The notes beneath the pieces were generated by a model. The model worked only from the letters and a program-made list of their open reading frames with translations, had not been told where the DNA came from and made no database searches. The translations under genes were made by a program, and so were the position numbers. Below are positions 28,487 through 59,524 of a stretch of DNA of 64,000 nt, piece by piece (within the stretch, counting starts at the first letter, position 1; each line of letters begins with the position of its first letter). This DNA comes from Ferrovibrio sp. (GTDB lineage: Bacteria; Pseudomonadota; Alphaproteobacteria; Ferrovibrionales; Ferrovibrionaceae): positions 69,501-133,500 of the forward strand of contig NZ_PEKV01000005.1 of assembly GCF_002796975.1 (NCBI RefSeq). The letters are read 5' to 3'.

Positions 28487-28545
28487 TAGCCGATCTTTTC
28501 GCCCGAGCATCGAAAACAATCCATCCTGGAAAAGAAGACTTAAAA

Positions 28546-31631: not shown

Positions 31632-32602
31632 TGGACGTCACGGTCGGAATTGTCGGGCTTGGCTCGATCGGCATCCGGCATGCGCGGAACTTCCTGTCGG
31701 CCGGCGCGCAGGTGATGGGCTGGGATCCGCGGCCGGAAAGTCGCCTCGCCCTTGCCGCGCTGGGCGGTGAGGTGGTCGATGCGCGCTCTGTGGTTTTCGA
31801 CCGGGCCGATGCCATCGTGGTGGCATCGCCCAGCCGCTTTCATCATGCTGATCTGATCGAAGCGATCCGGCGCGGCCTGCATGTCTTTGTCGAGAAACCT
31901 CTGGCCCATACCGAGACTGACCTGGCTGCGGTCTTCACCGTGGCCGATCAGAGCGGTACCATTGTCTTTGCCGCGCTCAACATGCGGTATCATCCGGCGG
32001 TCTCCGCTGCCCGTGCGCTGTTCGACAGGCTGGGTGAGCCACTATGGGCCCGCGGCATCTGCGCCTCGTATCTGCCGGAATGGCGGCCGGGCAGTGATTA
32101 CCTCAGCAATTACGCGGCGGATGCATCGACCGGCGGCGTCATCTTCGACCTGACCCATGAGTTTGACCTGCTGAACCACCTGCTCGGTCCTGCCGAGGTG
32201 GTTGCAGCGGCGGCGCAGAACAGCGGCCTGCTTGGCATCGAAAGCGAAGACTGCGCCGATGTCATTCTTCGCCATGGCAGGCGGATTCAGTCCAGCCTGC
32301 ACCTCGATTACATCACGCGCCCACGGCTGCGTGTGACGGAAGTCGGGTTTACCGAAGGCTTGCTGCGGATCGACATCCGCAACCGGCGTCTCGATGCCTG
32401 GGCTGCGGATGGCAGCGTGATGGCGAAGCAGATGTTTGGTGGCAGTGTCGATGACGATTATCGCGGGGAAGCGGCGAATTTTCTTGCTTGCCTGCGTGGC
32501 GAGCAGCGCCCTGCCTGCGATGGCTGGGAGGCACTGGGCGTCCTGCGCCAGGTTCTGGCAGCACGCCGGATGTGTGGCCTGAAAGAGGAGGCGTGCCTGT
32601 GA
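31631..32602 (+). CDS. Gfo/Idh/MocA family oxidoreductase
   Basis: A 323-residue NAD(P)-dependent sugar oxidoreductase with VGIVGLGSIGIRHARNF and the active-site segment [12 protein letters not shown]. The C-terminal domain contains FDLTHEFDLLNHLLGP, typical of the family. It is distinct from the WbpB-like domain at 26.9 kb. It is immediately coupled (GTGA overlap) to a divergent NeuB-like gene, then an SpsF-like gene and a class III aminotransferase, and probably oxidises a sugar that feeds these enzymes. That is inference. Confidence 0.85.
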   Translation: MDVTVGIVGLGSIGIRHARNFLSAGAQVMGWDPRPESRLALAALGGEVVDARSVVFDRADAIVVASPSRFHHADLIEAIRRGLHVFVEKPLAHTETDLAAVFTVADQSGTIVFAALNMRYHPAVSAARALFDRLGEPLWARGICASYLPEWRPGSDYLSNYAADASTGGVIFDLTHEFDLLNHLLGPAEVVAAAAQNSGLLGIESEDCADVILRHGRRIQSSLHLDYITRPRLRVTEVGFTEGLLRIDIRNRRLDAWAADGSVMAKQMFGGSVDDDYRGEAANFLACLRGEQRPACDGWEALGVLRQVLAARRMCGLKEEACL

Positions 32603-33588
32603 GTCGCATCATTGCAGAAGTTGCCCAGGGGTATGAGGGCCGCCTCGACCTGTGCCGCCTATATATCAAGGCCGCGGCGAAGGCTCGTGCCAATGCCGTG
32701 AAGTTCCAGATTGTGTATGCGGACGACATCGCGCAGCCCGACTACCAGTATTATGATTGGTACCGGCAACTCGAGATGCCGGTCGAGGCATGGCAGGAGG
32801 TGCGCCGGTTGGCCAGTGTGGCCGGGATACCGCTGTTCACCGATGTATCCGGCGACCGTGCATTGGCTATGGCCCGCACGATCAGGCCGGACGGCCTGAA
32901 ATTTCATTCGTCGAATTTCTTCAATCGCCGCTTGATGCGGCAGGCCTTCGACATCGTGCCGCATGTGTTCATTTCGATTGGCGGCATAGAGGAAGATGAG
33001 ATCGGCGGCCTGCTTGCCGATATCCGGCAATGGCAGGCCGGGGAGCGCATCACCCTACTTTACGGCTTCCAGTCGGAGCCGACGCCGGTTGAGCTCAGTG
33101 GGCTGGCCAGGTTGCCGGTTCTGAAGCAGCGTTTCGGTGTGCCTGTCGGTTTCCTGGATCATGTCGATGGTGCATCCCCAGATCGCATGGCCGTCAGCAC
33201 CATGGCGGTCGCACTGGGAGCCGACTGGATAGAGAAGCATCTGACAATCAGTCGCCATCTAGAAATCGAAGACTACGTCTCGGCGCTGGAGCCGGACGAA
33301 TTCACCGACTATGTCGGGCAGATGCGACGCCTCCAGCAGGCTCTGGGCTCCACCGCACTTCAATTGACCGATGGCGAGCGGGCATACCGGCACAAGGCGA
33401 TCAAGAAAGTCCTTGCGCTGCGCGATCTGGCAGCAGGCCATGTCCTCGGTGAAGGGGATATCGAACTGAAGCGGACCGAAAATGTGCCGCCAGGCCAAGG
33501 TCTGAACGATCCCGCGCTGGCGATTGGGCGCCATCTGGGCCGAGCCGTTGCGGCGGGCAGCGCGATCCTGAAGGCGGATATCCGATGA
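32599..33588 (+). CDS. Divergent NeuB/SpsE-family synthase
   Basis: A 329-residue protein with the NeuB TIM-barrel pattern (AAAKARANAVKFQIVYADDI near residues 26-45) and a C-terminal SAF-like domain (AGHVLGEGDIELKRTENVPPG). The usual AEIGxNHxG motif is replaced by AEVAQGYEG, so the conserved Asn-His is absent. The two metal-binding histidines typical of the family appear kept (FLDHVDG and IEKHLT). The family condenses phosphoenolpyruvate with an amino sugar to make a nonulosonic acid. The changed N-terminal motif suggests a different substrate. It starts at a GTG overlapping the previous stop. Confidence 0.8.
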   Translation: MSRIIAEVAQGYEGRLDLCRLYIKAAAKARANAVKFQIVYADDIAQPDYQYYDWYRQLEMPVEAWQEVRRLASVAGIPLFTDVSGDRALAMARTIRPDGLKFHSSNFFNRRLMRQAFDIVPHVFISIGGIEEDEIGGLLADIRQWQAGERITLLYGFQSEPTPVELSGLARLPVLKQRFGVPVGFLDHVDGASPDRMAVSTMAVALGADWIEKHLTISRHLEIEDYVSALEPDEFTDYVGQMRRLQQALGSTALQLTDGERAYRHKAIKKVLALRDLAAGHVLGEGDIELKRTENVPPGQGLNDPALAIGRHLGRAVAAGSAILKADIR

Positions 33589-34334: not shown

Positions 34335-35686
34335 TGACGACCGAAGACAGGGGACGCAATGAAATGACACGGCTGCAGTTCGAGAAGTCGAAGGCTTTCG
34401 GACGCCGGATCGAACAGTTGATTCCTGGCGGCAGCCACACCTATTCCCGTGGTCGCGACCGTTTCCCTGCTGAATCGCCTAACGGCATCGTGCGCGGCAA
34501 GGGTCCGCGCATCTGGGATGCGGACGGCAATTGCCTTGTCGATTGGGCCATGGGGCTGACGGCCGTTTCGCTCGGTCACGCCGATGATGCGGTCGATCGT
34601 GCCGTTTGTGCCGCCATCAAGGATGGCGTGATCTTCCAGCGGTCGTCGCAGCTTGAACTGGTTGCGGCAGAAGCTTTTCTGTCTCTGACGGGTACGGACA
34701 TGGTGAAGTTCGCCCGGCACGGGTCCGCTGTGACGACGGCGGCCGTCAAGCTGGCGCGTGGCTTCACGCGCCGAGCTGGTGTGGCAGTGCCTAAGGAACA
34801 TCCGTTCTTTTCCTACGACGACTGGTTTATCGGCACGACAGCCTGCGATTTCGGCATTCCAGACGAGGCGAAGCTGCACACCTGGCAGTTTTCCTACGGT
34901 GACGTCGCGTCGCTGCATGACGTGTTCCGCGCCCATCCTGGCGAGATCGCCTGCGTGATCATGGAGCCGGTGAAATTCGAGCCGCCGCCGGACGGTTATC
35001 TGCAGGAGGTCCGGGCGCTTTGCCATCGCGAAGGCGCGCTGTTTATCCTCGATGAGATGGTGACCGGCCTGAAACTCGGCGTGCCTGGTGCCGCCGCTAC
35101 GCTGAAGGCAGAGGCAGACCTCTACACATACGGCAAGGGCATCGCCAATGGGTATGCCAATGCTGCCCTGACCGGTCGGGGCGACGTCATGAGCATTGGC
35201 GGTCTGGAACCGGCGGGTGCGCCCAAGTTGTTCCTGCTGTCGACGACGCATGGCGGGGAGTCGGTCGGCCTAGCCGCCACCATCGCCACTCTACAACGGT
35301 TCGCCGACGGCATGATCGTGCGCCAGACTGCGCAGACGGGTGAACTGCTGCGCGACCGCCTGCAGTCGGTGATCCGTCGCCATGGGCTCGATGCACATCT
35401 GCGAATCTACGGCTATCCGGCGCTGATGGCCCTTGAAGTGCGTGGCCCGGACGGCAGGCCCAATGCGGCCTTCCAGACGCTGTTCCTGCAGGAGGTCATC
35501 GCGCATGGCGTTCTGCTGCAGGGCATCTTCGTGCCGACCCCAAGTCATGGCGAGGCCGAGATTGCCGCTACCGAGCAGGCTTTTGATGCGGCCTGTCCGG
35601 TTCTGGCCCAGGCCTTGGCGCAGAACACTACCGATGGCCTGCTGATCGGCCCGCCAATGCGGCCGGTATTCCGAAAGCACCTGTGA
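34334..35686 (+). CDS. Class III PLP aminotransferase, glutamate-1-semialdehyde aminomutase-like
   Basis: A 450-residue fold-type I PLP enzyme. It has IPGGSHTYSRGRDRFP, the segment VKFARHGSAVTTAAVKLAR, the cofactor aspartate in FILDEMVTGLK and the Schiff-base lysine in LYTYGKGIANGY. It resembles GSA aminomutase and related sugar-cluster aminotransferases. A housekeeping haem role is unlikely in the middle of a glycan operon. It probably aminates a carbonyl in a nonulosonate or an attached group. The ATG overlaps the previous stop (TGATG) and the stop overlaps the next GTG. Confidence 0.86.
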   Translation: MTTEDRGRNEMTRLQFEKSKAFGRRIEQLIPGGSHTYSRGRDRFPAESPNGIVRGKGPRIWDADGNCLVDWAMGLTAVSLGHADDAVDRAVCAAIKDGVIFQRSSQLELVAAEAFLSLTGTDMVKFARHGSAVTTAAVKLARGFTRRAGVAVPKEHPFFSYDDWFIGTTACDFGIPDEAKLHTWQFSYGDVASLHDVFRAHPGEIACVIMEPVKFEPPPDGYLQEVRALCHREGALFILDEMVTGLKLGVPGAAATLKAEADLYTYGKGIANGYANAALTGRGDVMSIGGLEPAGAPKLFLLSTTHGGESVGLAATIATLQRFADGMIVRQTAQTGELLRDRLQSVIRRHGLDAHLRIYGYPALMALEVRGPDGRPNAAFQTLFLQEVIAHGVLLQGIFVPTPSHGEAEIAATEQAFDAACPVLAQALAQNTTDGLLIGPPMRPVFRKHL

Positions 35687-37200
35687 CGCACCAAGCCGTA
35701 TTCCGCTGCGATGCCTCGCCTGCCATCGGCGGCGGGCATGTCATGCGCTGTCTTGCTCTGGCGAACGCATTGGCAGAGGCCGGCTGGCAATCGACTTTCG
35801 CCACCTGTGCCAGCAGCACAGGCGTATTGCCGGCTATCAGCCAGTCCGGTCATGAAATACGGGTTGTTAATGTCGCGGCATCCCAAGCTGCGCAGGCGGA
35901 TGAAATCGCGGCGTGGTATCCAGATGGCATCGCTCTTCTGGTGGCAGACCATTATGGACTGTCGGCCGGGTTCGAGCATGCCGGCAGATCCTGGGCGAAA
36001 GAAATCCTGGTGATCGATGAGTTGGCAGACCGAGAGCATGATTGCGACATGCTGCTGGCGCCGGTTCCAGGGTGCCGGCCGGAAGATTACAGGGGCAGAG
36101 TGCCGGACGAGTGCCGGTATCTTACCGGTGCTGAATACGCGCTCTTGCGACCGCAATTCGCCCGCGCGCGGCAGACCGCCCGCAGCCGGCGTTCTGACAG
36201 GCACGACGCCGGCAGGATTCTGGTCAGTTTCGGTGCGGCGGACGGCAGGCGGATGACCCCGCGCGTGCTGTCGGCGTTGGCCGATGCGGGATACCGGGCT
36301 CCAGTAACCGTGATTGTCGGGGCCAGTGCCGAGAGTGCTTCGGTGCTCACCGAGATGGCGCCGCGCCTGCCCTATCCCATATCAGTACTGCATGATGTCG
36401 ATGACATGGCGGCGCAGATGACTGCGGCCGACATTGCAATAATGGCGGCAGGCTCCTCTCTGCTCGAGGCGGCCAGCTTGGGCTTGCCGGTGGTCGCCGT
36501 GGTGACGGCCGACAACCAGCAAAGGCAGGGGGCAGCGATCCATGAGGCTGGTGCGATCCGGTTGGCGGGCGACTGGAATAGTCTCGACCTACCCGCTCTC
36601 GCCGACATGGCGCTGGGGCTACTGCGGGATCCGTCGACGCTGCAGTGCATGAGTGAAAACGGCATGCGTCTCTGTAACGGCCGTGGCGCAAGCCGGGCGG
36701 CACTTGCGATCAGCCCGCCACGCGATAATGCCGGGAACGGCATCGGACTGCGTCCGGCAAGTTTCAACGATGCCGAGCTTATGTTCCGCTGGCAGACGAC
36801 GCCAGGAGCACGGAAGTGGATGCGCAATTCGGCCGCGCCGAGCTATGCCGAGCACATGGCCTGGTGGCAGCGCCGGTTGCAGATGATCGATCTGGACCTT
36901 TATATCGTCGAGGCTCCCAAGCCGGTTGGCTATGTCCGGGTGGATGGGATGGCGGATGGACGGCACGAAGTTTCCATCATGATCGATCCTGATCATGCAG
37001 GACGGGGCGTGGGGACCGCAGCGTTGCGTGCATTGCGCAGGCTGCTGCCGGAACTACCGCTTCATGCCGAGATTCGTCCGGGAAATCTGGCCTCGGCGAG
37101 CATTTTTGCCAAAGCGGGTTACCGGCAGGATGGCGGCAACGGCTGGTATCGCAGCGATCCTATTGCGGCAGGAAGCGGCGATGCTAGGACTACGCCATGA
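35683..37200 (+). CDS. PseG-PseH fusion: UDP-sugar hydrolase and N-acetyltransferase
   Basis: A 505-residue fusion. Residues about 1-345 are PseG, a GT-B-fold hydrolase that releases UDP from the diacetamido-altrose nucleotide (RCDASPAIGGGHVMRCLALA, with the likely catalytic His19, and AAGSSLLEAASLGLP near 260). Residues about 355-495 are a GNAT domain of the PseH type (GLRPASFNDAELMFRWQ, then VSIMIDPDHAGRGVGTAALR). PseH acetylates the 4-amino group just before PseG acts, so the two domains catalyse consecutive steps. The GTG start overlaps the previous stop. Both domain calls are strong. Confidence 0.9.
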   Translation: MTHQAVFRCDASPAIGGGHVMRCLALANALAEAGWQSTFATCASSTGVLPAISQSGHEIRVVNVAASQAAQADEIAAWYPDGIALLVADHYGLSAGFEHAGRSWAKEILVIDELADREHDCDMLLAPVPGCRPEDYRGRVPDECRYLTGAEYALLRPQFARARQTARSRRSDRHDAGRILVSFGAADGRRMTPRVLSALADAGYRAPVTVIVGASAESASVLTEMAPRLPYPISVLHDVDDMAAQMTAADIAIMAAGSSLLEAASLGLPVVAVVTADNQQRQGAAIHEAGAIRLAGDWNSLDLPALADMALGLLRDPSTLQCMSENGMRLCNGRGASRAALAISPPRDNAGNGIGLRPASFNDAELMFRWQTTPGARKWMRNSAAPSYAEHMAWWQRRLQMIDLDLYIVEAPKPVGYVRVDGMADGRHEVSIMIDPDHAGRGVGTAALRALRRLLPELPLHAEIRPGNLASASIFAKAGYRQDGGNGWYRSDPIAAGSGDARTTP

Positions 37201-38090
37201 TGAAGGCCATGCTGAAGCGGCGTATCGCGGAGCGCTTGGCGCAGTACAATCGGATTGTCATCTGGGGAGCCGGTAGTGCCGGACTGCTGGCCTTGGGGCT
37301 GCTGCCGCGGGACCGGATTATATATGCGGTCGATAGTTTCAGTTCCGCGCGTGATCTGGATGGCAAGCCGGTCGAGCGGCCCGAGCGGCTGCGGGAAGAA
37401 CATCCCGATACCCTGGTGATGATCGCCTCGATCGCCGACAAGGAGATCGGCAGCTGGATGGATGAGAACGGCGTCGTCTGCGTGCGCATGGATTTCTATG
37501 GGCTGCTGGTCGAAGTAGTCGATCCTGCTTCGATGAAGGATCTGCTGGCTGCGGACCTGTTGGCGAACTGGCACGGCAGTCTGGTGGAAACATTGATCCG
37601 GCGACCGCAGATATTGGTCAATCTGTCGTATCGCGTCAGCCATAGCTTGCTGCGATCGCGGTCGCTGCCGGGCCGGATTGCGGCGACATTGTCACGGCTA
37701 TGGCATGCTTCCAACTGCGCCTATTTCGGCATCGATATTCCGGCGGAAGTCAGCGCTGGTCCTGGCCTGGTATTTGCCCATTGCGGCGCCATCGTCGTTC
37801 ACCGCCGGGTCACGCTAGGCAGCTTCTGCACCCTGTACCAAGGAACCACCCTAGGAGCTAACCGGCGCGGCGCAGTGCCTCGTCTGGGCGGGCGGGTGAT
37901 CGTATGGGCCGGTGCGGTGGTGGTGGGTGACTGCATCCTCGGTGACCGCACCGAAGTCGGGGCCAACAGTACCGTGCTGGGGCCGTTTGAAGTGAATCAC
38001 GCAATCATTGCCGGCACGCCGGCACGGGTGTTGCGCCAGTTTTCGCATCCGGCGGCCGGCGAAAAAGCAGAGGATCGTAATGAGCGCTAA
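37197..38090 (+). CDS. Nucleotide-binding domain fused to a CysE-type hexapeptide acetyltransferase
   Basis: A 297-residue protein. The N-terminal 110 residues open with a Rossmann-like motif (RIVIWGAGSAGLLALGLL) and look like a sugar-modifying or CoA-binding-type domain. The C-terminal 150 residues form a left-handed beta-helix resembling serine acetyltransferase (CAYFGIDIPAEVSAGPGLVF, HCGAIVVHRRVTLGSFCTL, VIVWAGAVVVGD). The role is probably O- or N-acetylation of a sugar or of the amino acid made by the nearby cysteate-synthase-like enzyme. The ATG overlaps the previous stop, and the 3' end overlaps the ATP-grasp gene by 11 bases. Confidence 0.78.
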   Translation: MMKAMLKRRIAERLAQYNRIVIWGAGSAGLLALGLLPRDRIIYAVDSFSSARDLDGKPVERPERLREEHPDTLVMIASIADKEIGSWMDENGVVCVRMDFYGLLVEVVDPASMKDLLAADLLANWHGSLVETLIRRPQILVNLSYRVSHSLLRSRSLPGRIAATLSRLWHASNCAYFGIDIPAEVSAGPGLVFAHCGAIVVHRRVTLGSFCTLYQGTTLGANRRGAVPRLGGRVIVWAGAVVVGDCILGDRTEVGANSTVLGPFEVNHAIIAGTPARVLRQFSHPAAGEKAEDRNER

Positions 38091-39144
38091 GCCGATGAGG
38101 ACTGTCTTGGTCACGGGCGCGGGCGGGCCGGGCTATCCGGCCATATACAAGGCCCTGCACAGCTCGACGCGGTTCAGCTATCGTATCATCGGCGCAGAAC
38201 TGAATCCGCTGGCTGGAAATCTTTATCGGTCCGACTGGGTTGATGCTGCCTATCAAGTTCCCCCCACTCTTGCGTCGGACTATTTCGACTGCATCTTGGA
38301 TGTAATCCGCCGCGAAGGTGTGACCTTCTGGTACAGTGCGGTCGATGAGGAACTGCCGATCATCGCCGCCAATGCAGCGCGCCTGGCCGAAGCCGGCTGT
38401 GGAATGCTGTTGCCGCCCCCGGAGGCGCTGGAGGCCTCCTTCGACAAGGGGGTGACCACCCGTATGCTGAGCGGCAAGGTACCGATGCCGCGCACCCTGC
38501 TGTCCTCGGAAGTTGCGCTTGAGGATGCCTGGACGCAGCTGGGCGCGCCGATGGTGGTCAAGGCCTGCCGTACGCGCGGCAACAGGCATAACTATCGTGC
38601 CCACTCGCTCGACGAGTTGAAGATCCAGGTGGCGGCCCTCGAAAGTGCTGGGCTGGACTTCCTGTACCAGGAACAGGTCGATGGCGAAGAATTCAACGTT
38701 TCGCTGATGATGGATGCAAATGGCAATCCGCTGTTTTCTGTCGCGCGCCAGAAGATCGATCCGCCGCGGACCCGTGCCAACACTTTCTGCGGGATCATCC
38801 GGCGCGACGCGGTCATGGAAGGCCATGCTGTTGCTGTAGCGCGGGAGATGAAGTTGTTCCCAGGTATGAACAATGTCGAATTCCTGCGCCGCCGTGGTGG
38901 CGAGCCCATGGTGATAGATGTCAATGGCGGCCGGCACGCCGCCCAAGATTTCAACATCATTGCCTCGGGCGTTAATTTCCCAGAGATGCTGATCGACATG
39001 GCGCAGGGCCTGCCAGTCTCCGCTCCAGATCCATCCCGCTTTCGGGAGGGTACGATGACGGTCAAGTTCGTCGATGACATGGCCATCCACATCGATGATC
39101 TGCGTGCGTTCTGTCATGGTTTCGATCTAAAGGTGGAAGAGTGA
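38080..39144 (+). CDS. ATP-grasp carboxylate-amine ligase-like protein
   Basis: A 354-residue protein of the ATP-grasp superfamily. It has an N-terminal Rossmann-like domain (TVLVTGAGGPGYPAIYKALH) and a central segment with PMVVKACRTRGNRHNYRA supplying ATP-binding residues. A later block, VDGEEFNVSLMMDANGNP, precedes the metal-binding VIDVNGGRHAA. The layout recalls carbamoyl-phosphate-synthase-like and PylC-like ligases, which join an amine to a carboxylate using ATP. The final motif reads DVNGGRHA where DVNPR is common. Coupled to the cysteate-synthase-like gene downstream by TGATG, which suggests the two act on the same compound. Confidence 0.8.
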   Translation: MSAKPMRTVLVTGAGGPGYPAIYKALHSSTRFSYRIIGAELNPLAGNLYRSDWVDAAYQVPPTLASDYFDCILDVIRREGVTFWYSAVDEELPIIAANAARLAEAGCGMLLPPPEALEASFDKGVTTRMLSGKVPMPRTLLSSEVALEDAWTQLGAPMVVKACRTRGNRHNYRAHSLDELKIQVAALESAGLDFLYQEQVDGEEFNVSLMMDANGNPLFSVARQKIDPPRTRANTFCGIIRRDAVMEGHAVAVAREMKLFPGMNNVEFLRRRGGEPMVIDVNGGRHAAQDFNIIASGVNFPEMLIDMAQGLPVSAPDPSRFREGTMTVKFVDDMAIHIDDLRAFCHGFDLKVEE

Positions 39145-40475
39145 TGTTGCATTATCAAGTCCGCTGCCCCGGTTGCGGCGCCATGACCGACGACAATGGC
39201 GTGATGAACAGCTGTTCCAGTGGCTGCAGCGGCAAGACAGTTCCGGTTTTCCAGCCTCGCGGACCGGTTGCCATCGACCGCAATGCAACGGGCTTCAGGC
39301 GCTATGCCGCTCTGCTGCCGTGCAGTGAGGTGCTGGACACGCCATTCCCGGTATCCACTTTCCGAGCCACACGCCTGGCAGAGACGCTTGGTTTCGACAA
39401 TCTTTACCTGACCCTGACAGGCCATTTCCCTAAGCTGGGTCAGACGTCCCCGACCTGCTCCTTCAAGGAACTGGAGGCGGTGGCGGTCTTCAGCCGGTTG
39501 CGCACGCATGACTGCCGGCGTCCAGTCTTGTTGGCCAGCGCGGGCAATACGGCACGTGCCTTTGCTTATTTCGGGGCAAAGATCGGCTATCCCACGGTCA
39601 TCGCGGTGCCCGGCAATGCACGCGCGTCGCTGTGGCTGCCCGACGAGGATGGCCTGGCGGAACGCGTTGAACGTTTTGTCCGGTTCGTGTCGGTGCGTGA
39701 GCCGGGCAATTATCTTGATGCCAGCCGGCTCTGTGCGGCCGTACAGGCTGCGCTCGGAAGCGCAGTGATCAATGAGGGCGGTTTTACCAATATCGGGCGG
39801 ACCACCGGTCTGGGCTTGTGCGCCGCTAGTTTTGTAGATGCCGTTGGGCGTGTTCCCGATCATTACGTCCAGGCCGTCGGTTCGGCTTCGGGCGCGGTTG
39901 CGGCGTTGCGAACCTACGAACTGCTGATGGGCGCATCTGCCCGGCCGATGTCGCTGCATCTGATCCAGAATGCGCCTTATACGCTGCTGGTGGATGCCCT
40001 TGAGGCCCGCCGCGTCAAGGTCGATGCAACACCCTATCTCGACTACATCGATTCGGCATGTTCTCCCATGTTGACCAGTGCCGATCCTGCCTATGCCTAT
40101 CCAGGCGGGCTGAAAGAGCGCCTGGACGACGGCTGGTCGATCGGAGGCGCAGCCGTTACCAACAGTGAAATCTATTCGGCGCAGCATTTGGCATGGCGCA
40201 CTGAGAGGCTGCAATTGCTGCTTCCGGCGGCGGCGGCACTCGCGGGACTTAAGCAGCTTGTCGAGAGCGGCCGGATCGGGCGCACCGAGACGGTGCAACT
40301 GAACCTGACCGGTGGTGGCGAGGAGCAACTCAAGGCGGAGTGCGGCTATTTCCATCCGCATCTCGATGAAGGACTGTCCGCCATCATTCCCGAGGTGCGG
40401 GGTGAGGTGGCGCGAGGCGACGCGGCACACCGCGTTGCCGGCCGTCTTGGTCGCTGGATTGCCGAGTTTGAGTAA
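39144..40475 (+). CDS. Cysteate synthase/threonine synthase-like PLP enzyme
   Basis: A 443-residue fold-type II PLP enzyme. It opens with a zinc-ribbon-like CPGCG motif and a second Cys pair (CSSGCSG). The cofactor lysine lies in PTCSFKELEAVAVFSRL, the form I recall from archaeal cysteate synthases and unlike the SFKDR motif usual in threonine synthase. Further blocks are LLASAGNTARAFAYF, the segment INEGGFTNIGRTTGLG and VQAVGSASGAVAAL. Cysteate synthase makes L-cysteate from O-phosphoserine and sulfite. In this operon the product may be attached to a sugar by the preceding ATP-grasp ligase. Assignment to the cysteate branch is from motif memory, not a search. Confidence 0.75.
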   Translation: MLHYQVRCPGCGAMTDDNGVMNSCSSGCSGKTVPVFQPRGPVAIDRNATGFRRYAALLPCSEVLDTPFPVSTFRATRLAETLGFDNLYLTLTGHFPKLGQTSPTCSFKELEAVAVFSRLRTHDCRRPVLLASAGNTARAFAYFGAKIGYPTVIAVPGNARASLWLPDEDGLAERVERFVRFVSVREPGNYLDASRLCAAVQAALGSAVINEGGFTNIGRTTGLGLCAASFVDAVGRVPDHYVQAVGSASGAVAALRTYELLMGASARPMSLHLIQNAPYTLLVDALEARRVKVDATPYLDYIDSACSPMLTSADPAYAYPGGLKERLDDGWSIGGAAVTNSEIYSAQHLAWRTERLQLLLPAAAALAGLKQLVESGRIGRTETVQLNLTGGGEEQLKAECGYFHPHLDEGLSAIIPEVRGEVARGDAAHRVAGRLGRWIAEFE

Positions 40476-40488
40476 GGGGGCAACACGG

Positions 40489-41457
40489 ATGTCCGACAAG
40501 GTTCTTGTCATTGCTGAAATCGGCTCGAATCACGACGGCGACCTCGGGCACGCACTCGATCTAATCGATGTCGCGGCTGATTGTGGTGCCGATGTCGCCA
40601 AATTTCAGAGTTTTCTTGCGGAGGAAATGCTGGCGCCGAGTCACCCCAACTATCCGATGCTCAAAAAGCTGGAAATGCCGCGCGCTTGGTATCCTAAGCT
40701 GATGGAGCGTTGTGCCAGTCGCGGGGTCCGTTTCCTTTCGACGGCCACAAATTTCACCTCCTTGGCCTGGATGGAGGAATACGGCGCCTGGGGCTACAAG
40801 GTAGCCTCGTGTAACATCACGTATGAACCGCTGCTGGAATATCTGATCCGCATCAACAAGCCGATCATCATTTCCACTGGCATGGCGACGCTGGAAGAAA
40901 TTCTTGCCCTGTCCCGCCGCCTGGGCGATGCTGGTATGCGGGACTATGCCTTCCTGCATTGCGTGAGCCGGTATCCGGTACCGGCGACCGAGATGCGGTT
41001 GCGCAATATTACCGTGCTGAAGGAAATCCTTCCTTGCAAGGTAGGGTTGTCGGATCATTCCTGGGGCATGCATCTTGCTGTGGCGGCGGTCGCCCTGGGT
41101 GCGCGGATCGTTGAAAAGCATCTAACCAACAACAAGCAGGGCTATAGTCCTGACCACCACGTTTCGATTCTGCCGGACGAGTTTTCACGCATGGTGCAGG
41201 CGATCCGGGAAACCGAAGCGGCGCTGGTCGCGAATTTCGCTCCCGATGTGGAATCCATCCATACGATGCGGCGCTCGCTGCATTTTGCCCGTTCGATGCA
41301 GGCCGGCGAGGAAATCACGGCCGCAGACCTGAAAGTGACCCGGCCCGAGGACGGCCTGCTGCCAGGACAGCAGACAGCCGTGATTGGTCGCAGGCTGGCG
41401 CAGCCGGTGGCAACCGACCAGCCGTTGTCGTGGGATCTGTTCGAGGCAGAAAAATGA
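40489..41457 (+). CDS. NeuB-family nonulosonic acid synthase
   Basis: A 322-residue synthase with the canonical opening VIAEIGSNHDGDLGHALDLI, then CGADVAKFQSF, the barrel segment YKVASCNITYEPLLEYL and IISTGMATLEEI. Metal histidines lie in LSDHSWG and VEKHLTNN. The C-terminal SAF domain is visible (MQAGEEITAADLKVTRPEDG). The family condenses phosphoenolpyruvate with an N-acetylmannosamine-like sugar. It is not clearly of the PseI type, which usually reads AELSANHxG. It lies between the cysteate-synthase-like gene and a PIG-L deacetylase. Confidence 0.9.
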   Translation: MSDKVLVIAEIGSNHDGDLGHALDLIDVAADCGADVAKFQSFLAEEMLAPSHPNYPMLKKLEMPRAWYPKLMERCASRGVRFLSTATNFTSLAWMEEYGAWGYKVASCNITYEPLLEYLIRINKPIIISTGMATLEEILALSRRLGDAGMRDYAFLHCVSRYPVPATEMRLRNITVLKEILPCKVGLSDHSWGMHLAVAAVALGARIVEKHLTNNKQGYSPDHHVSILPDEFSRMVQAIRETEAALVANFAPDVESIHTMRRSLHFARSMQAGEEITAADLKVTRPEDGLLPGQQTAVIGRRLAQPVATDQPLSWDLFEAEK

Positions 41458-42134
41458 GCCGGATACTTGTGGTGGCGGCCCATCCTGATGATGAAGTGCT
41501 GGGCTGCGGCGGCACTCTGGCCCGTCATGCGACGGCCGGCGACGATGTTCATGTCCTGATTGTCACCGAAGGAGCGACATCGCGTGATGATATGCGTGAC
41601 CCCACCGGCCGGGGTGATGAAATGCGGGCCCTGCGCGCCGCCGCCGCCGCCGCCGCCCATGCACTGAGCATCCAGGCTCCGCGATTTGGCGGATTGCCCG
41701 ATAACCGCCTGGACAGCCTGCCGTTGCTGGATGTGGTCAAGCTGGTGGAAAAAGTGGTGGCCGAAGTCGGGCCTGAGATCGTTTATACGCATTGCGGCGT
41801 GGATTTGAATATCGATCATCAGAGGGTGTCGCAGGCAGTGCTGACGGCCTGCCGCCCGCAGCCGGGTGCGACAGTACGCCGTATTCTGGCTTACGAAACG
41901 CAGTCAAGCACCGAATGGTCAGCCTCTGGGGTATTCCGCCCGACGGTGTATGTCGATATCGCCGCTTATCTGCCGGCCAAGATGCGCGCTCTGCAGGCTT
42001 ACGCTGCCGAAATGCGTGCCTTTCCACATGCACGATCGCTGGAAGCAATCGAAGCTCTGGCCCGGTGGCGCGGTGCCTCTGCAGGCATGATGGCTGCTGA
42101 AGCCTTCGAGTTGATGCGGGAATGCCAGGTCTGA
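41454..42134 (+). CDS. PIG-L/LmbE family N-deacetylase
   Basis: A 226-residue deacetylase with the zinc motif AAHPDDEVLGCGGTL (residues about 8-22) and the later HCGVDLNIDHQRVSQ carrying the third ligand. It is a second, shorter family member than the one at 23.5 kb. A run of seven alanines near residues 62-68 is encoded by an almost pure GCC repeat. The start overlaps the NeuB stop by four bases. It may free an amine on the NeuB product for later acylation or ligation, which is inference. Confidence 0.86.
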   Translation: MSRILVVAAHPDDEVLGCGGTLARHATAGDDVHVLIVTEGATSRDDMRDPTGRGDEMRALRAAAAAAAHALSIQAPRFGGLPDNRLDSLPLLDVVKLVEKVVAEVGPEIVYTHCGVDLNIDHQRVSQAVLTACRPQPGATVRRILAYETQSSTEWSASGVFRPTVYVDIAAYLPAKMRALQAYAAEMRAFPHARSLEAIEALARWRGASAGMMAAEAFELMRECQV

Positions 42135-43870
42135 TGACCGGACAGTTTTCCGAGTTGCGCGAATCGCTGGCTTATCTTGCCACCCATTATCCGGTGGCGA
42201 TGGTAACCAGCTTGGTACTGCTGTTTGCCGCAGCGATGGCTGAAAGTATCGGCGTGTTCACTCTGTTGCCGGTGCTGCAGGTGGTCAGCGGCGCGACTGC
42301 AGGGGAGGGCGCCGCCAACATGCTGCTGGAGCCCATCCGGGCCCTTGGCCTAGAGCCGACCCTCCCGCTGTTGCTGGTGGTGATGGTGGCAGGCATCCTG
42401 CTCAAGGCTGTGCTGACACTCAGTGCTGCTGTGGCGTCGGGTTTTGCCGCAGCCCAGATTGCCACGGATCTGCGCATTGCACTGATGCGCACCCTGATGA
42501 AGGCGCAGTGGTCATATTTTATCCGCCAGCCAGTCGGCATTCTCGCCAATGCGGTCAGTGGTGAAGCGATGCGGGCATCGGGTATCTTTGTTGCCGCCTG
42601 CAGGCTGATTAGCGAGCTGGTCCGAACTGCCGTCTATGTTGTCCTCGCGCTGTTTGTCTCTTGGCCGGTCACCATTGCCGCTGTTGCGGCCGGATTAGTC
42701 ATGCTGATCATCATGCGTGGCCCGATCCGCGTTGCCCGCGATGCCAGCGTTCGGCAGAACCAGGCCCTACGTTCGCTGACGCAGCGGCTGGCCGACGGTC
42801 TGATGTCGTTCAAGGCGATCAAAGCCATGGGCCGGGAGGACCGGCTTGCGCCGCTGTTGGAGGCGGATACGCAGGAGGTCAACCGCTCTCAGCGCAAGGA
42901 GATGGTTGCCATTGCCTTGATGGCCAATGCCAACGAGCCGCTCATCGCCGTGATCCTGGCCTTCGGCGTCTATGGCGCGGTGAACCATGCCGATACCCCG
43001 TTCAGCCAGCTTCTGTTCATGGCCGTCGTGCTGCAGAGGATTCTGGCTGCCATCGGGGCGACCCAGAATTCCTATCAGGGGCTGGTGCGCATGCTGCCGG
43101 CCTGGCTGGCTCAGCAGCAGTCGATTACTGCCGCCAGCCGCGCGCCCGAGATCAACACCGGACGCAAGTCTCCCGACTTTCGACGCCAGATCGTCCTGGA
43201 TCATGTGACCTTCGCCTATGGAGAAGCCGCGGTATTGCATGATCTGAGTTTGTCGGTGCCGGCTGGTCAGCTGACGACGATTGTCGGCCCCTCCGGTTCC
43301 GGTAAAACCACGATCATCGATCTCATTCTGGGCCTGCAGGTACCGCAGAGCGGAACCGTGCGGCTGGATGGCGTGGATCTGACGGATATCGATCTACAGG
43401 CCTGGCGCCGCAGTATCGGGTATGTGCCGCAGGAAGTGTATCTGTTCAACGACAGCATCTATGCCAATGTCAGCCTGGACGACCCTATGATCACACCCGA
43501 GGCAGCAGAGAATGCATTGCGAGCGGCAGATGCATGGGCCTTCGTCGAGAAACTCTCGCATGGCATGGAGACCCCGATCGGGGAGCGCGGTGGCTGGCTC
43601 TCTGGCGGGCAGCGACAGCGTATCGCCATTGCCCGCGCGCTTGCCCGCCGGCCGGCGCTGCTGATTCTGGACGAAGCGACTTCCGCGTTGGACAGCCGTA
43701 CCGAAGCGGAAATCTGCGCGACGCTTGCGGCGCTGAAAGGGAAGGTGACGATTCTTGCTATATCGCATCAGCCGGCGCTCGCCGCACTGGCGGATACTGT
43801 TTACCACCTGAAAGATGGCGTTGTGATCGAAGCCTCGGATGGGATTGGTCTAGCGCGTGGTCATGTCTGA
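42134..43870 (+). CDS. ABC exporter, flippase type (permease plus ATPase)
   Basis: A 578-residue half-transporter. Residues about 1-330 form the membrane domain with about six helices (for example MVTSLVLLFAAAMAESIGVF). Residues about 335-575 form the ATPase with GPSGSGKTTIIDLI (Walker A), WLSGGQRQRIAIARAL (signature) and LLILDEATSALDS (Walker B). The pattern resembles MsbA and PglK-like lipid-linked oligosaccharide flippases. It is the only transporter in the glycan region of this window and probably flips a lipid-linked glycan. The start overlaps the previous stop (TGATG). Confidence 0.9.
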   Translation: MTGQFSELRESLAYLATHYPVAMVTSLVLLFAAAMAESIGVFTLLPVLQVVSGATAGEGAANMLLEPIRALGLEPTLPLLLVVMVAGILLKAVLTLSAAVASGFAAAQIATDLRIALMRTLMKAQWSYFIRQPVGILANAVSGEAMRASGIFVAACRLISELVRTAVYVVLALFVSWPVTIAAVAAGLVMLIIMRGPIRVARDASVRQNQALRSLTQRLADGLMSFKAIKAMGREDRLAPLLEADTQEVNRSQRKEMVAIALMANANEPLIAVILAFGVYGAVNHADTPFSQLLFMAVVLQRILAAIGATQNSYQGLVRMLPAWLAQQQSITAASRAPEINTGRKSPDFRRQIVLDHVTFAYGEAAVLHDLSLSVPAGQLTTIVGPSGSGKTTIIDLILGLQVPQSGTVRLDGVDLTDIDLQAWRRSIGYVPQEVYLFNDSIYANVSLDDPMITPEAAENALRAADAWAFVEKLSHGMETPIGERGGWLSGGQRQRIAIARALARRPALLILDEATSALDSRTEAEICATLAALKGKVTILAISHQPALAALADTVYHLKDGVVIEASDGIGLARGHV

Positions 43871-45446
43871 TCTACAGCTCGACGCCGCAAAGTTAGACGT
43901 CAGTAGTGAAGGCGTGCGTGAATTCACGTGGCCCGTCAGCCGTGCAGGCCTTCTGGCGACCCGTGACGCCTTTATTACCGCCTGTATCGGTTTGGCCCGG
44001 CAGCAGACGAATGCCGACTGGCGCGACTGGCTGTCCGTGTTGAGCCCGCATGCAATGGCGGAAGTCATGACAGTTTATTCCGCCTGGGCATTGCGTCAGC
44101 ATTGCCGCAACAGCGGCCAGGCCTGTCATACGGTGCCGCAGAACCGCCTGTTGAGCAGCTTCTTACGCGATCAATGCCCGCAGGGTTCGCTTCTGGCTGA
44201 TCGGTTGCGGCAGGGAATGCCAAAACCATCGGGCCTGCGCCTGCCGCTACGCATCGCGCGCTCCCTCCTGGTCCGGGATGGTCTGCGTCGTCTCTATTTC
44301 GGCGAACCTGGCGCGCAGCCGGGCCCCGTCGTCATCACCACATCAGGTCGGATTTCAGCGCATGCGCGTCGCAACAATCGTCCGGTTACCTATATCGGGC
44401 CGCATGTGTGGTTCGGCCCGCTCGCCGAGAGTGATCTCAAGGCGGCAACCGCGGCAGTTTCCGAATCCGGCTTGGCTGAAGTGTTGGTGCGTATCGCGGC
44501 CGAGGCTTTCGCCGCTGGTGGTGTGGCGTTGGAAGGTGCGGCGCGTGAGTATCTCGCCGACTATTTCCTCGACGCGCTAGCCGGAATATGCGCCCGTCTG
44601 AAGAGTCTGCTGGAAAGGCCGGAGCGACTGCCCCGCGAGTTGTGGACCGGGGCCGGCAGTCCGATCTGGCCACGGCTGCTGCGACATGCCGTTCGCCGGG
44701 CCGGAGGCTGGATCACCGGGTTTGACCATACGCCGGGGTCGAGCTACACCACGTCGATCCAGAAGACGGTTGTGGATTTCGAGGCTTGCAACGAGTTCCG
44801 CACGATCAGTCCGGGACAGGCCGAGGCCTATCCCCGCTGGACACTGCGTCTGGATCTGCTGGTGCAACCGCACCCCCCCGTCATCGTCGGCCATGAGCAG
44901 GTGATCACGCGTGCCCGCACCGCGCGCCCAGACAAGATTCGCCGCGTGATGCTGGTGACCAGCGAGTACACGACGGAGATGGAGCGCGGCCTGCCGCTGT
45001 TGCCGGTCCCGGTTCTTGTCGACTGGCATGCCCGGCTGCTCGGCCGGCTGAAAGCGCTCGGCTATGAAGTTCTGCTCAAGGGACATCCAGAAAGCGATCA
45101 GCCGTTCCCCGATGCTTTCTCGGCCATCACTGGCCAGCCGCCGCTGCAGGGGCGGTTCGAGAACCTAGCCAGCCAGGCCGACGCGGTAATTTTTGATTGG
45201 TCGCGGACAACGACGCTGGCGGCGGCACTCCAGTTCGACCTGCCGATCGTGCATATTGATTTTGGCTTGGGATTTCTCACCAACCAGGCAGATGCGATGT
45301 TGTCGCGGCGTTGTGCAACTGTTCGCGGCTGGCTAGATCGCGACAACCGCTGCCAGATTGCCTGGGATGAGCTGCAGCAGGCCATTGAAACTGCACCCGG
45401 ACTGACCGACCGCGAGTTTGAAGCGTGCTATTTAAATCTTCAGTGA
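43863..45446 (+). CDS. Putative GT-B-type glycosyltransferase, unknown family
   Basis: A 527-residue protein. No family is recognised in the N-terminal half. The C-terminal half has features of GT-B or CDP-glycerol-type transferases: a KGHPES motif at about residue 400 and, downstream, ADAVIFDWSRTTTLAAALQF, where a nucleotide-sugar-binding acidic segment is expected. The ATG overlaps the end of the transporter gene. A run of seven C bases (44873-44879) lies in the middle. Being next to the exporter, it may transfer a nonulosonic acid or assemble the glycan. The function is inferred. Confidence 0.68.
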   Translation: MSDLQLDAAKLDVSSEGVREFTWPVSRAGLLATRDAFITACIGLARQQTNADWRDWLSVLSPHAMAEVMTVYSAWALRQHCRNSGQACHTVPQNRLLSSFLRDQCPQGSLLADRLRQGMPKPSGLRLPLRIARSLLVRDGLRRLYFGEPGAQPGPVVITTSGRISAHARRNNRPVTYIGPHVWFGPLAESDLKAATAAVSESGLAEVLVRIAAEAFAAGGVALEGAAREYLADYFLDALAGICARLKSLLERPERLPRELWTGAGSPIWPRLLRHAVRRAGGWITGFDHTPGSSYTTSIQKTVVDFEACNEFRTISPGQAEAYPRWTLRLDLLVQPHPPVIVGHEQVITRARTARPDKIRRVMLVTSEYTTEMERGLPLLPVPVLVDWHARLLGRLKALGYEVLLKGHPESDQPFPDAFSAITGQPPLQGRFENLASQADAVIFDWSRTTTLAAALQFDLPIVHIDFGLGFLTNQADAMLSRRCATVRGWLDRDNRCQIAWDELQQAIETAPGLTDREFEACYLNLQ

Positions 45447-46607: not shown

Positions 46608-47672
46608 ATGTCCGCCGAACTTACATTTGACAATGTCGTGGTTAACGACGCATCCGATTGCTATGTGATCGCCGAGATCGGTAACAACCATCAGGGCGAT
46701 CTGGACAAGTGTCGGCAGTTGTTCGTTGCGGCCAGGGAGGCTGGCGCCAACGCGGTAAAGTTACAGAAGCGCGATAACCGTACGCTGTTTACAAAGGCCA
46801 TGTATGACCAGGCGTATAACAGCGAGAATGCTTTCGCCCCCACTTATGGCGCGCATCGAGATTTTCTCGAATTTGGCCGTGACGAGTATGTCGAGCTCAG
46901 GAAGCTGGCTAAGGAATTGAACATTACGTTCTTCGCCACGGCATTCGACATTTCGAGCGCTGACTTCCTGGAAGAACTCGAGATGCCCTTTTATAAGATC
47001 GCGTCGGCCGACCTGACGAACATTCCGCTGCTGAAACATGTGGCGGCATTTGGCAAGCCGGTCATCGTCAGCACGGGTGGTGGGTCAATGACCGATATCC
47101 GGCGCATGTACGATGCCGTCATGCCGATCAATAGACAGCTGAGCATCCTACAGTGCACGGCAAGCTATCCCTGTGAAGTCGAGAAGCTGAATTTGCGGGT
47201 CATCGAAACCCTGCGGCGTGAGTTCCCTGGTGTGGTGGTCGGGCTTTCGGCGCATGACAACGGGATTGCCATGCCCGTCGTCGCTTACATGCTGGGCGCA
47301 CGTGTGGTGGAGAAGCATTTCACACTCAACCGATCGTGGCGCGGAACGGACCATGCTTTCTCGCTCGCTCCAGACGGGATGCGGAAGATGGTACGTGATC
47401 TGCAACGGACGCGGGCGGCCCTCGGCGATGGCGTGAAACGCGTCCTGCCCGAGGAGGAGGCTCCGATCAAGAAGATGAGTAAGAAGCTGGTTGCCGCCCG
47501 CCCGCTTGCCGCTGGTCATGTGCTGCAGGTCGATGATATCGCACTCAAGTCTCCAGGCGATGGCCTGCCGCCTTATGATCTGGACCGGCTGATCGGCCGC
47601 ACTCTGGCAACCGCGCTGGAGGAAGACGCAACGTTCAGCTGGGACTGTGTGGCCGGAAGTGCACCTAAGTGA
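46608..47672 (+). CDS. NeuB-family synthase, probable 9-phosphate type
   Basis: A 354-residue synthase with YVIAEIGNNHQGDLDKCRQL, the segment AGANAVKLQKRDNRTLF, then YKIASADLTNIPLLKHV and a C-terminal SAF domain (AAGHVLQVDDIALKSPGDGLP). The first metal histidine lies in LSAHDNG, where SDH is commoner, and the second in VEKHFTLN. It is followed at once by a KdsC-like phosphatase, which would fit a route making a 9-phosphate (as for Neu5Ac-9-P or KDN-9-P) that is then dephosphorylated. This is the third NeuB relative in the window. GAGG lies upstream of the ATG. Confidence 0.9.
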   Translation: MSAELTFDNVVVNDASDCYVIAEIGNNHQGDLDKCRQLFVAAREAGANAVKLQKRDNRTLFTKAMYDQAYNSENAFAPTYGAHRDFLEFGRDEYVELRKLAKELNITFFATAFDISSADFLEELEMPFYKIASADLTNIPLLKHVAAFGKPVIVSTGGGSMTDIRRMYDAVMPINRQLSILQCTASYPCEVEKLNLRVIETLRREFPGVVVGLSAHDNGIAMPVVAYMLGARVVEKHFTLNRSWRGTDHAFSLAPDGMRKMVRDLQRTRAALGDGVKRVLPEEEAPIKKMSKKLVAARPLAAGHVLQVDDIALKSPGDGLPPYDLDRLIGRTLATALEEDATFSWDCVAGSAPK

Positions 47673-48187
47673 CGGGCATGCTGCGGACTGACGGACTGGA
47701 TGCCGGACTGACCGCGGCAATCCGTACTATCCGTCTGATCGTGTTTGATTTCGATGGCGTGTTTACCGATAACACAGTGATTGTCAGCGAGGATGGTCGG
47801 GAATCAGTGGTGTGCTGGCGTAGCGATGGCTTGGGATTGGCAAAATTGCGCCAGCGCGGACTGGAGATGCGAGTGCTCTCCACCGAAGTAAATCCGGTTG
47901 TGGCAGTGCGTTGCCGAAAGCTGCAGCTCGACTGCCAGCAAGGCTGTGATGACAAACTGACCGCCCTGAAGCGGCTAGCCGAGGCACGCGGGCTGTCTGC
48001 CGGACAGGTTGCTTATATGGGAAACGACATCAATGATTCCGAATGCCTGCGTTGGGCCGGCTTGCCGGTGGTTCCTGACGATGCCCATCCAGATGTGCTG
48101 GCGCTGGCGCGTTTACGCACCAGCCAGCCGGGCGGCCGCGGCGCGGTTCGGGAATTCTGCGATCTCGTCGACGGGGTGCTGGCGTAA
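47669..48187 (+). CDS. KdsC-like HAD phosphatase
   Basis: A 172-residue HAD-superfamily phosphatase of the KdsC type. It has the nucleophile motif LIVFDFDGVFTDN, the KdsC-style GLGLAKLRQRGLEMRVLSTE and the metal motif AYMGNDINDSECL. The common KdsC nucleophile motif is DVDGVLTDG; here it is DFDGVFTDN. Related enzymes hydrolyse Kdo-8-phosphate or nonulosonate-9-phosphates. The GTG start overlaps the NeuB stop, which supports action on that enzyme's product. Confidence 0.88.
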   Translation: MTGMLRTDGLDAGLTAAIRTIRLIVFDFDGVFTDNTVIVSEDGRESVVCWRSDGLGLAKLRQRGLEMRVLSTEVNPVVAVRCRKLQLDCQQGCDDKLTALKRLAEARGLSAGQVAYMGNDINDSECLRWAGLPVVPDDAHPDVLALARLRTSQPGGRGAVREFCDLVDGVLA

Positions 48188-57875: not shown

Positions 57876-58601
57876 ATGAGCAGCAGCACAAAGCCCAGGA
57901 CGCTGGGCGTTATCCCGGCCCGCGGTGGCTCAAAGCGGGTGCCGCGCAAAAACATCCTGCCGGTGGCCGGACATCCCCTGATTGCCCATACGATTATGGC
58001 CGCGGCCAGGGCAACTGCCCTGACGGACTGGCTGGTTACCTCGGAAGACGAGGAAATCATTGAAGTTGCGCGCCGGTACGGCGCTCTCGTCCCGTTCCGG
58101 CGGCCCGCCGAACTTTCCGGCGACGAAGTGCGCAATATCGATACGGTGAAACATGCGTTGGACTTCATGGAAGCGCAAACTGGCCAACTCTACGACATCG
58201 TCGTATTGCTGCAGCCGACTTGCCCGGTTCGCAACCCGGATCACATCGATCAGGCCGTAAACATGCTTTGGGCGTCGGAGCTGGATACGCTGGCAAGCGT
58301 GAAGGGCCCGTTCAAGAAGCGCGATCCCATCCTGAAGGGAATTTGTGACGGTGTGCTGGAACCGTGGTGCGCGCATTCAGAAGGCAATGACGCCAACCCC
58401 CTCTATCTGTACAACGCGTCCATCTATGCCACCAAGCGGGACTACTTCCTGCGCGAAGGCAGGCTAGTATCTCGCCGGCAGGTGCCGCTGGTGATGGACC
58501 AGATGCATTCCTGCGATGTTGACGAAGTACCAGACCTGCTGGTTGCCGAAGCCTATCTGAATTTTCTCGCCGAACGACGGACTGAAAAGGACAAGAAATG
58601 A
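57876..58601 (+). CDS. CMP-nonulosonic acid synthetase (NeuA/PseF type)
   Basis: A 241-residue cytidylyltransferase with the signature GVIPARGGSKRVPRKNIL, the segment LLQPTCPVRNPDHIDQA and a C-terminal DVDEVPDLLVAEA typical of NeuA/PseF. It activates a nonulosonic acid as its CMP derivative for transfer. It is the only classical NeuA in the window and could serve pseudaminic acid or one of the other NeuB products. It overlaps the next gene by four bases (ATGA). Confidence 0.92.
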   Translation: MSSSTKPRTLGVIPARGGSKRVPRKNILPVAGHPLIAHTIMAAARATALTDWLVTSEDEEIIEVARRYGALVPFRRPAELSGDEVRNIDTVKHALDFMEAQTGQLYDIVVLLQPTCPVRNPDHIDQAVNMLWASELDTLASVKGPFKKRDPILKGICDGVLEPWCAHSEGNDANPLYLYNASIYATKRDYFLREGRLVSRRQVPLVMDQMHSCDVDEVPDLLVAEAYLNFLAERRTEKDKK

Positions 58602-59515: not shown

Positions 59516-59524
59516 TCGTTCACC

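What the first reader, a model, noticed from the sequence alone, without database searches (positions are those of the whole stretch)
38080..42134. Cysteate-synthase-like enzyme coupled to an ATP-grasp ligase, a NeuB synthase and a deacetylase
Seen: four consecutive genes with overlaps or very short gaps encode an ATP-grasp protein (DVNGGRHA near the end), a fold II PLP enzyme with TCSFKELEA, a NeuB-family synthase and a PIG-L deacetylase. Known: cysteate synthase makes L-cysteate from phosphoserine and sulfite, ATP-grasp ligases join amino acids to amines, and NeuB makes nonulosonic acids. Inference: the block may make a sialic-like sugar whose freed amino group carries an amino acid, possibly a sulfonated one. 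I know of no described nonulosonate pathway with a cysteate synthase.
Basis: partly seen in the sequence, partly recalled or inferred. Interest (0 to 1): 0.85.

Follow-up and report, generated by a model that had tools for sequence, protein, structure and literature searches.

The report
Amino-acid-decorated sialic-like sugar gene cassette
Four tightly packed bacterial genes look able to make an unusual amino acid, perhaps a sulfur-bearing one, and attach it to a sialic-acid-like surface sugar; the combination looks rare, but its product has not been shown.

Summary
Four genes packed end to end (38080-42134) encode an ATP-grasp protein, a fold-II PLP enzyme, a NeuB synthase and a PIG-L deacetylase, inside an island that also has PseB, PseC, PseG and two more NeuB genes. 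The PLP enzyme is not a threonine synthase: its best family is cysteate synthase TIGR03844 (224 bits; thrC 43.5), it groups with cysteate-synthase-like proteins (100/100), joining it to threonine synthases is rejected (p-AU 0.002), and the genome has a separate true threonine synthase. It is a divergent relative: it misses the TIGR03844 cut-off (325) and lacks an Arg-Asp pair that all six compared relatives keep. So sulfite, and hence cysteate, is uncertain. In samples of its class (1 of 385) and phylum (1 of 398) only its own genome matched TIGR03844 at E<=1e-35. Best reading: the enzyme makes a beta-substituted alanine from phosphoserine, most likely cysteate, and the ATP-grasp ligase joins it to an amine that PIG-L frees on a NeuB product. 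The closest known parallel is the taurine-containing peptide on C. difficile type B flagellin glycan.

The parts
38080..39144 (+). ATP-grasp protein (354 aa), nearest the PRK12767 'carbamoyl phosphate synthase-like' models, with PylC-like N-domain; proposed amino acid-amine ligase
   Evidence: PF02655 36.4 bits (cut-off 23.2), PF21360 34.8 (27); PRK12767.1-1 94 bits, below its cut-off 218; one PDB match at E<=0.001, 2pn1, 2.5e-9
39141..40475 (+). Cysteate-synthase-like fold-II PLP enzyme; start GTG 39141 or ATG 39144; K109 aligns with the PLP lysine
   Evidence: TIGR03844 223.8 bits (cut-off 324.9), TIGR00260 thrC 43.5; PDB 9k3c 'Cysteate synthase' 4.1e-49, next 1uim threonine synthase 6.1e-11; trees and AU tests
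40489..41457 (+). NeuB-family nonulosonate synthase number 2 with SAF domain (322 aa)
   Evidence: PF03102 228.9 bits; NeuB_NnaB 278 and PseI 241, both below cut-offs; PDB SpsE 2.7e-44, pseudaminic acid synthase 2.3e-42; start
41454..42134 (+). PIG-L (LmbE-like) N-deacetylase
   Evidence: PF02585 94.6 bits; best NCBIfam BshB1 67.8, below cut-off 182.5; PDB TT1542, diacetylchitobiose deacetylase, MshB among 11 matches
28432..29583 (+). PseB
   Evidence: TIGR03589 515 bits, cut-off 408
29614..30822 (+). PseC aminotransferase
   Evidence: TIGR03588 489 bits, cut-off 423.5
32488..33588 (+). NeuB-like synthase number 1 (divergent)
   Evidence: PF03102 117 bits; NeuB_NnaB 129.5, below cut-off
35683..37200 (+). 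PseG fused to a GNAT acetyltransferase
   Evidence: TIGR03590 PseG 234 bits, cut-off 153.6; PF13302 53.6 bits
42122..43870 (+). ABC exporter, MsbA/PglK-like; overlaps the PIG-L stop (alternative start 42134)
   Evidence: PF00005 121.6, PF00664 50.7 bits; HepA 278, MsbA 261, PglK 213 bits, all below cut-offs; start
43857..45446 (+). unassigned protein, possibly a glycosyltransferase
   Evidence: no Pfam family at E<=0.001; only PF07388 polysialyltransferase at E 0.15
46608..47672 (+). NeuB-family synthase number 3
   Evidence: NeuB_NnaB 292 bits, below cut-off; 35% identical to number 2
47669..48187 (+). KdsC/KDN-9-phosphatase-like HAD protein
   Evidence: PRK09484 103.4, TIGR01670 93.5, KDN-9-PPhBT 84.7 bits, all below cut-offs
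57876..58601 (+). PseF-like cytidylyltransferase
   Evidence: TIGR03584 127.5 bits, cut-off 205.7; PF02348 64.2 bits, cut-off 22.6

Best explanation
The cassette makes an amino acid and installs it on an amino sugar of a nonulosonate-containing surface glycan. The PLP enzyme replaces the phosphate of O-phospho-L-serine by beta-elimination and addition, giving a beta-substituted alanine, most likely L-cysteate (from sulfite) or a close analogue. PIG-L removes an N-acetyl group from the nonulosonate made by NeuB, or from its precursor or activated form. The ATP-grasp ligase activates the amino acid carboxylate with ATP and forms an amide with the freed amine. The product is then built into and exported with the island's glycan. 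Shown: families, gene order, clade placement, scarcity in the samples searched. Inferred: substrates, sugar, order of steps, final structure. I put the decoration logic at about 0.45 and cysteate specifically at about 0.25.
For: Tight packing with overlapping stops and starts. The cysteate-synthase-like clade with the window is split off with 100/100 support, and joining the window to threonine synthases is rejected, p-AU 0.0021 and 0.00195. K109, the arginine aligned with R160 of 1uim, the insertion before the lysine loop and the EGGxxN motif are kept. The genome has a true threonine synthase elsewhere (PRK08197 652.7 bits, cut-off 303), so threonine supply need not explain it. PseB, PseC and PseG pass cut-offs in the same island. 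PIG-L relatives with solved structures include sugar N-deacetylases. In L001 another cysteate-synthase-like gene overlaps a gene with a weak ATP-grasp signal, in a locus with a glycosyltransferase and a sulfotransferase. Precedent: taurinyl-Ala-Gly on Fuc3N of C. [quoted passage not shown]
Against: TIGR03844 cut-off missed, 224 against 325. R221, D222, E257 and R261, kept in 6 of 6 relatives, are T, T, R and L here. The two relatives with the best independent link to cysteate (9k3c by its PDB name; G936 beside a cysteate-C-fatty acyltransferase match) both keep the RRD loop. L001's ATP-grasp-like protein shows no BLASTP similarity to the window's, and L001's sister L017 shows no ATP-grasp-like neighbour, so the pairing is not conserved. 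Three NeuB genes make the sugar ambiguous. The structure model was unusable. No glycan data.
Confidence: 0.45

Rival explanations
1. Same decoration logic, but the PLP enzyme uses a nucleophile other than sulfite (for example ammonia, giving 2,3-diaminopropionate, or another amine or thiol), so the substituent is not sulfonated. This overlaps with the best explanation.
For: Loss of R221/D222 next to the arginine aligned with R160 of 1uim, and of E257 and R261, all kept in the 6 compared relatives; longest end branch of the tree, 2.04, and sub-cut-off score.
Against: That R221/D222 serve sulfite binding is my inference, untested; 46 of 60 columns invariant in the six relatives are kept.
Confidence: 0.3
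2. The PLP enzyme and ATP-grasp serve another amino sugar of the island (one made by the DegT aminotransferases at 24445 or 55688, or by the routes of NeuB number 1 or 3); NeuB number 2 is only a neighbour in the gene run.
For: The island is a long run of mostly same-strand genes with several amino-sugar enzymes and three NeuB genes.
Against: NeuB number 2 follows after 13 bases and PIG-L overlaps it.
Confidence: 0.3
3. The amino acid is used elsewhere (free cysteate, a sulfonolipid or another sulfonate), and the ATP-grasp acts on something else.
For: Cysteate synthase serves sulfonolipid synthesis in Chryseobacterium (PMC11211663, passages); in G936 the gene lies beside a close match of cysteate-C-fatty acyltransferase 28eh (E 2.7e-109).
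Against: No such acyltransferase among the window proteins that I scanned; the rest of the genome was not searched for one.
Confidence: 0.12
4. An ordinary threonine synthase that happens to lie in a glycan cluster.
For: Distant thrC similarity, 43.5 bits.
Against: p-AU 0.002; a true threonine synthase is present elsewhere.
Confidence: 0.03

Closest known systems
Clostridioides difficile type B flagellin glycan locus (CDR20291_0244-0247)
   Same: Amino-acid decoration of an amino sugar ending in a sulfonate (taurinyl-Ala-Gly on Fuc3N); [quoted passage not shown]
   Different: Fuc3N, not a nonulosonate; taurine, not cysteate; the passages I saw name no cysteate synthase, NeuB or PIG-L protein
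Cysteate synthase, TIGR03844 (coenzyme M in Methanosarcina: PMC12713407, passages; sulfonolipids: PMC11211663, passages)
   Same: Same clade, aligned lysine and arginine, insertion before the lysine loop
   Different: Below the equivalog cut-off, lacks the RRD loop, and lies among glycan genes rather than beside comDE or a fatty acyltransferase
Pseudaminic acid pathway
   Same: PseB, PseC, PseG over cut-off; NeuB number 2 matches NnaB and PseI models and structures
   Different: The standard pathway (recalled) has no PLP amino-acid enzyme, ATP-grasp ligase or deacetylase
Bacillithiol/mycothiol synthesis (BshB/MshB deacetylase, then cysteine ligase)
   Same: Logic of freeing a sugar amine and joining an amino acid (recalled); PIG-L best matches BshB1, 67.8 bits
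   Different: Below cut-off; an ATP-grasp rather than BshC or MshC (recalled); nonulosonate surroundings

Membership tests
Cysteate synthase TIGR03844 | Score over the curated cut-off 324.9 | tested here: not met
   223.8 bits
Cysteate synthase TIGR03844 | Groups with cysteate-synthase-like proteins, apart from threonine synthases | tested here: met
   100/100 branch; joining to the two threonine synthases p-AU 0.0021 and 0.00195
Cysteate synthase TIGR03844 | Nested inside the group rather than its sister | tested here: inconclusive
   p-AU 0.165 and 0.247 for the sister placement
Cysteate synthase TIGR03844 | RRD loop after the phosphate-site arginine (that it defines the family is my inference) | tested here: not met
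   RTT here, RRD in 6 of 6 relatives
Cysteate synthase TIGR03844 | Makes cysteate from phosphoserine and sulfite | not testable with these tools
   needs an enzyme assay
Threonine synthase TIGR00260 | Score over cut-off 167.1 and tree placement | tested here: not met
   43.5 bits; p-AU 0.002
NeuB family PF03102 | Over gathering score | tested here: met
   228.9 against 22.1
NnaB or PseI equivalogs | Over equivalog cut-off | tested here: not met
   278 of 399.7 and 241 of 340.3
ATP-grasp PF02655 | Over gathering score | tested here: met
   36.4 against 23.2
ATP-grasp amino acid-to-sugar ligase | Joins an amino acid to a sugar amine | not testable with these tools
   inference from family and neighbours
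PIG-L PF02585 | Over gathering score | tested here: met
   94.6 against 28.2
Pseudaminic acid pathway (island) | PseB, PseC, PseG over cut-off | tested here: met
   515/408, 489/423.5, 234/153.6 bits
Pseudaminic acid pathway (island) | PseF and PseI over cut-off | tested here: not met
   PseF 127.5 of 205.7; PseI at most 241 of 340.3 in the three NeuB proteins

The most novel reading that the evidence does not exclude
A nonulosonic-acid pathway that carries its own cysteate synthase and installs a sulfonated amino acid on the sugar, giving a sialic-like surface sugar with a sulfonate group.
Probability: 0.25. Interest if true: 0.82.

Novelty: new variant of a known kind. Interest (0 to 1): 0.57.

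Why it matters
If true, it adds amino-acid synthesis and ligation to a sialic-like sugar pathway, gives an enzymatic route to a sulfonated surface sugar, and takes the cysteate synthase family beyond coenzyme M and sulfonolipids. It would also give a gene signature (cysteate-synthase-like, ATP-grasp, NeuB, PIG-L) to look for. In the open library, 'cysteate' with 'nonulosonic' gave 0 papers and 'cysteate synthase' with 'glycan' gave 1, on methanogens (listing only); most subscription journals are not held, so this is weak evidence of novelty.

Tried and rejected
Threonine synthase: rejected. Structure model of the PLP enzyme from two sequences: mean pLDDT 36.6, not used, no fold search made. 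Viral contigs: no confirmed relative of the PLP alignment (32 stretches matched a pattern) or of the ATP-grasp (4 stretches). Genome contigs: 41 stretches matched, 1 confirmed, L001; that search used short patterns from one sequence and reaches close relatives only. Plasmids: 2 records for the PLP enzyme, both Streptomyces, 31% and 27%; 14 records for the ATP-grasp, all under 60% identity, neighbourhoods not read. Flagellin: two flagellin-like matches lie elsewhere, one on the same contig about 650 kb away; no MptE-like match, but the 4 controls that rang there are all archaea, so this says little about bacterial Maf proteins. L013, the only other genome of 385 with an ATP-grasp match at E<=1e-15, holds a double-length protein next to a decarboxylase-like frame (by eye). 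The L001 frame that I read by eye as a flippase has no Pfam match.

Row dropped: one tree row (longest frame of L009) was not a PLP enzyme; it is left out. The L001 protein is read from 9893 as it stands; its N-terminal stretch appears in another frame.

Papers: PMC5207245, PMC3765264, PMC11211663, PMC12713407, PMC3210612 and PMC8498110 were seen as search passages, the others only as listings. PMC8498110 repeats the C. difficile sulfopeptide and its passages show no taurine on a nonulosonate.
Full report
What is there. The four genes are real and closely packed. The ATP-grasp stop and the PLP enzyme start overlap, 13 bases separate the PLP enzyme from NeuB, and NeuB and PIG-L share ATGA. The gene before overlaps the ATP-grasp start and the ABC gene after overlaps the PIG-L stop. 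Pfam supports each of the four above its curated score.

The PLP enzyme. NCBIfam puts cysteate synthase TIGR03844 first at 223.8 bits, under its cut-off of 324.9, with thrC at 43.5. In the PDB the best match is 9k3c, named cysteate synthase (E 4.1e-49), against 6.1e-11 for the best threonine synthase. I compared it with six cysteate-synthase-like sequences (9k3c, G936, L001, G1181/L017 and two from Streptomyces), two threonine synthases and two other PLP enzymes of its own genome. The six plus the window are split off with 100/100 support. Forcing the window together with the threonine synthases costs 34.6 log units (p-AU 0.00195; 30.8 and 0.0021, without L017). Whether it sits inside the group or is its sister is open (p-AU 0.247 and 0.165). 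It has the longest end branch (2.04), so its exact place is unsure. Of 60 columns invariant in the six it keeps 46; of the 26 of these that differ from both threonine synthases it keeps 16. Among the ten lost are R221, D222, E257 and R261. K109 aligns with K61 and R220 with R160 of 1uim; that these residues hold PLP and the substrate phosphate is recalled. The loss beside R220 is why I do not assert sulfite as the nucleophile. The same genome has a true threonine synthase elsewhere (PRK08197 652.7 bits, cut-off 303).

Scarcity. With TIGR03844 at E<=1e-35: 1 of 18 genomes of the family and the same 18 as the order, 1 of 385 of the class, 1 of 398 of the phylum, each time only the window's own genome. 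Around other relatives: 2 of 235 (phylum of G757), 1 of 71 (class of G936), 2 of 317 (class of G757). These are samples and they overlap. The ATP-grasp at E<=1e-15 is in 2 of 385 genomes of the class, own included. An order of one family with 18 held genomes would fit Ferrovibrionales; this is recalled and untested.

Neighbourhoods of relatives. L001 (a Deltaproteobacteria MAG by title, Myxococcota by tree label): the gene overlaps one with a weak RimK-type ATP-grasp signal (E 0.0038, below cut-off), which has no BLASTP similarity to the window's ATP-grasp and no PDB match at E<=1; a glycosyltransferase (PF00534 122.9 bits) and a sulfotransferase (PF13469 73.5 bits) lie near. L011 (G936, TIGR03844 472 bits): beside a protein that matches PDB 28eh, cysteate-C-fatty acyltransferase, at E 2.7e-109, the sulfonolipid arrangement, so this one is probably a true cysteate synthase. 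L017 (G1181, 348 bits; sister of L001): no ATP-grasp-like neighbour among the frames printed (by eye); the two neighbours I scanned are a PilZ protein and a LuxR-type/PilZ protein. L006 and L007 (Streptomyces plasmids): beside an NRPS-like protein and a type III polyketide synthase in L006, and an aminotransferase and an FMN-dependent dehydrogenase in L007. Pairing with an ATP-grasp-like gene was thus seen in 1 of the 5 relatives whose neighbourhood I read; it is a hint and no rule.

The island. PseB, PseC and PseG pass their cut-offs; a PseF-like protein and all three NeuB proteins stay below the equivalog cut-offs. NeuB number 3 is followed by a KdsC/KDN-9-phosphatase-like gene, below cut-off. 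There is an MsbA/PglK-like ABC protein, several methyltransferases, DegT aminotransferases and a GT2 glycosyltransferase. Which sugar would carry the amino acid is not settled.

Mechanism. Phosphoserine to a beta-substituted alanine is inferred from the family and the kept arginine. Removal of an N-acetyl group by PIG-L is inferred; its relatives with structures include diacetylchitobiose and mycothiol-pathway deacetylases. Amide formation by the ATP-grasp is inferred. The parallel in C. [quoted passage not shown] Amino-acid acyl groups on other amino sugars are known in marine bacteria (PMC3210612, passages). A probable nonulosonate with a further moiety, from a cluster with a NeuB-domain gene, is known in Shewanella flagellin (PMC3765264, abstract and passages).

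Literature limits. The founding cysteate synthase paper is not held. Searches (0 papers; 1; 1; 0; 1; 1) gave no description of this combination; the papers of 35 and 72 were seen in passages, those of 43 and 84 as listings.

Check. On re-reading, the by-eye labels of neighbours were replaced; one (a flippase in L001) was not borne out by Pfam.

Verdict. Real, scarce and chemically suggestive: a divergent cysteate-synthase-like enzyme in a nonulosonate island. The sulfonated-sugar claim is possible and not shown.

Noticed in passing
window 1-24000: Conjugative element genes (T4SS coupling protein, CagX, weak TrbL, ArdC N-domain protein, DUF1173) lie just before the glycan island, which may have arrived with a mobile element.
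   Followed up: no
window 32488-33588, 40489-41457, 46608-47672: Three NeuB-family synthases in one island, number 1 strongly divergent: up to three nonulosonate-type sugars.
   Followed up: partly
window 34313-35686: Glutamate-1-semialdehyde-aminomutase-like protein, just over the PRK06209 cut-off (491 against 486 bits), between a cytidylyltransferase-like gene and PseG; perhaps a sugar aminotransferase.
   Followed up: no
window 43857-45446: 529-aa protein with no Pfam family at E<=0.001; only a polysialyltransferase match at E 0.15.
   Followed up: partly
window 58598-61447: DHDPS-like and transketolase-like genes inside the glycan island.
   Followed up: no
L006 8983-10281, L007 8896-10278: Cysteate-synthase-like genes with the RRD loop on Streptomyces plasmids, beside an NRPS-like protein and a type III polyketide synthase (L006) or an aminotransferase and an FMN-dependent dehydrogenase (L007); possibly a cysteate building block for a peptide.
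   Followed up: partly
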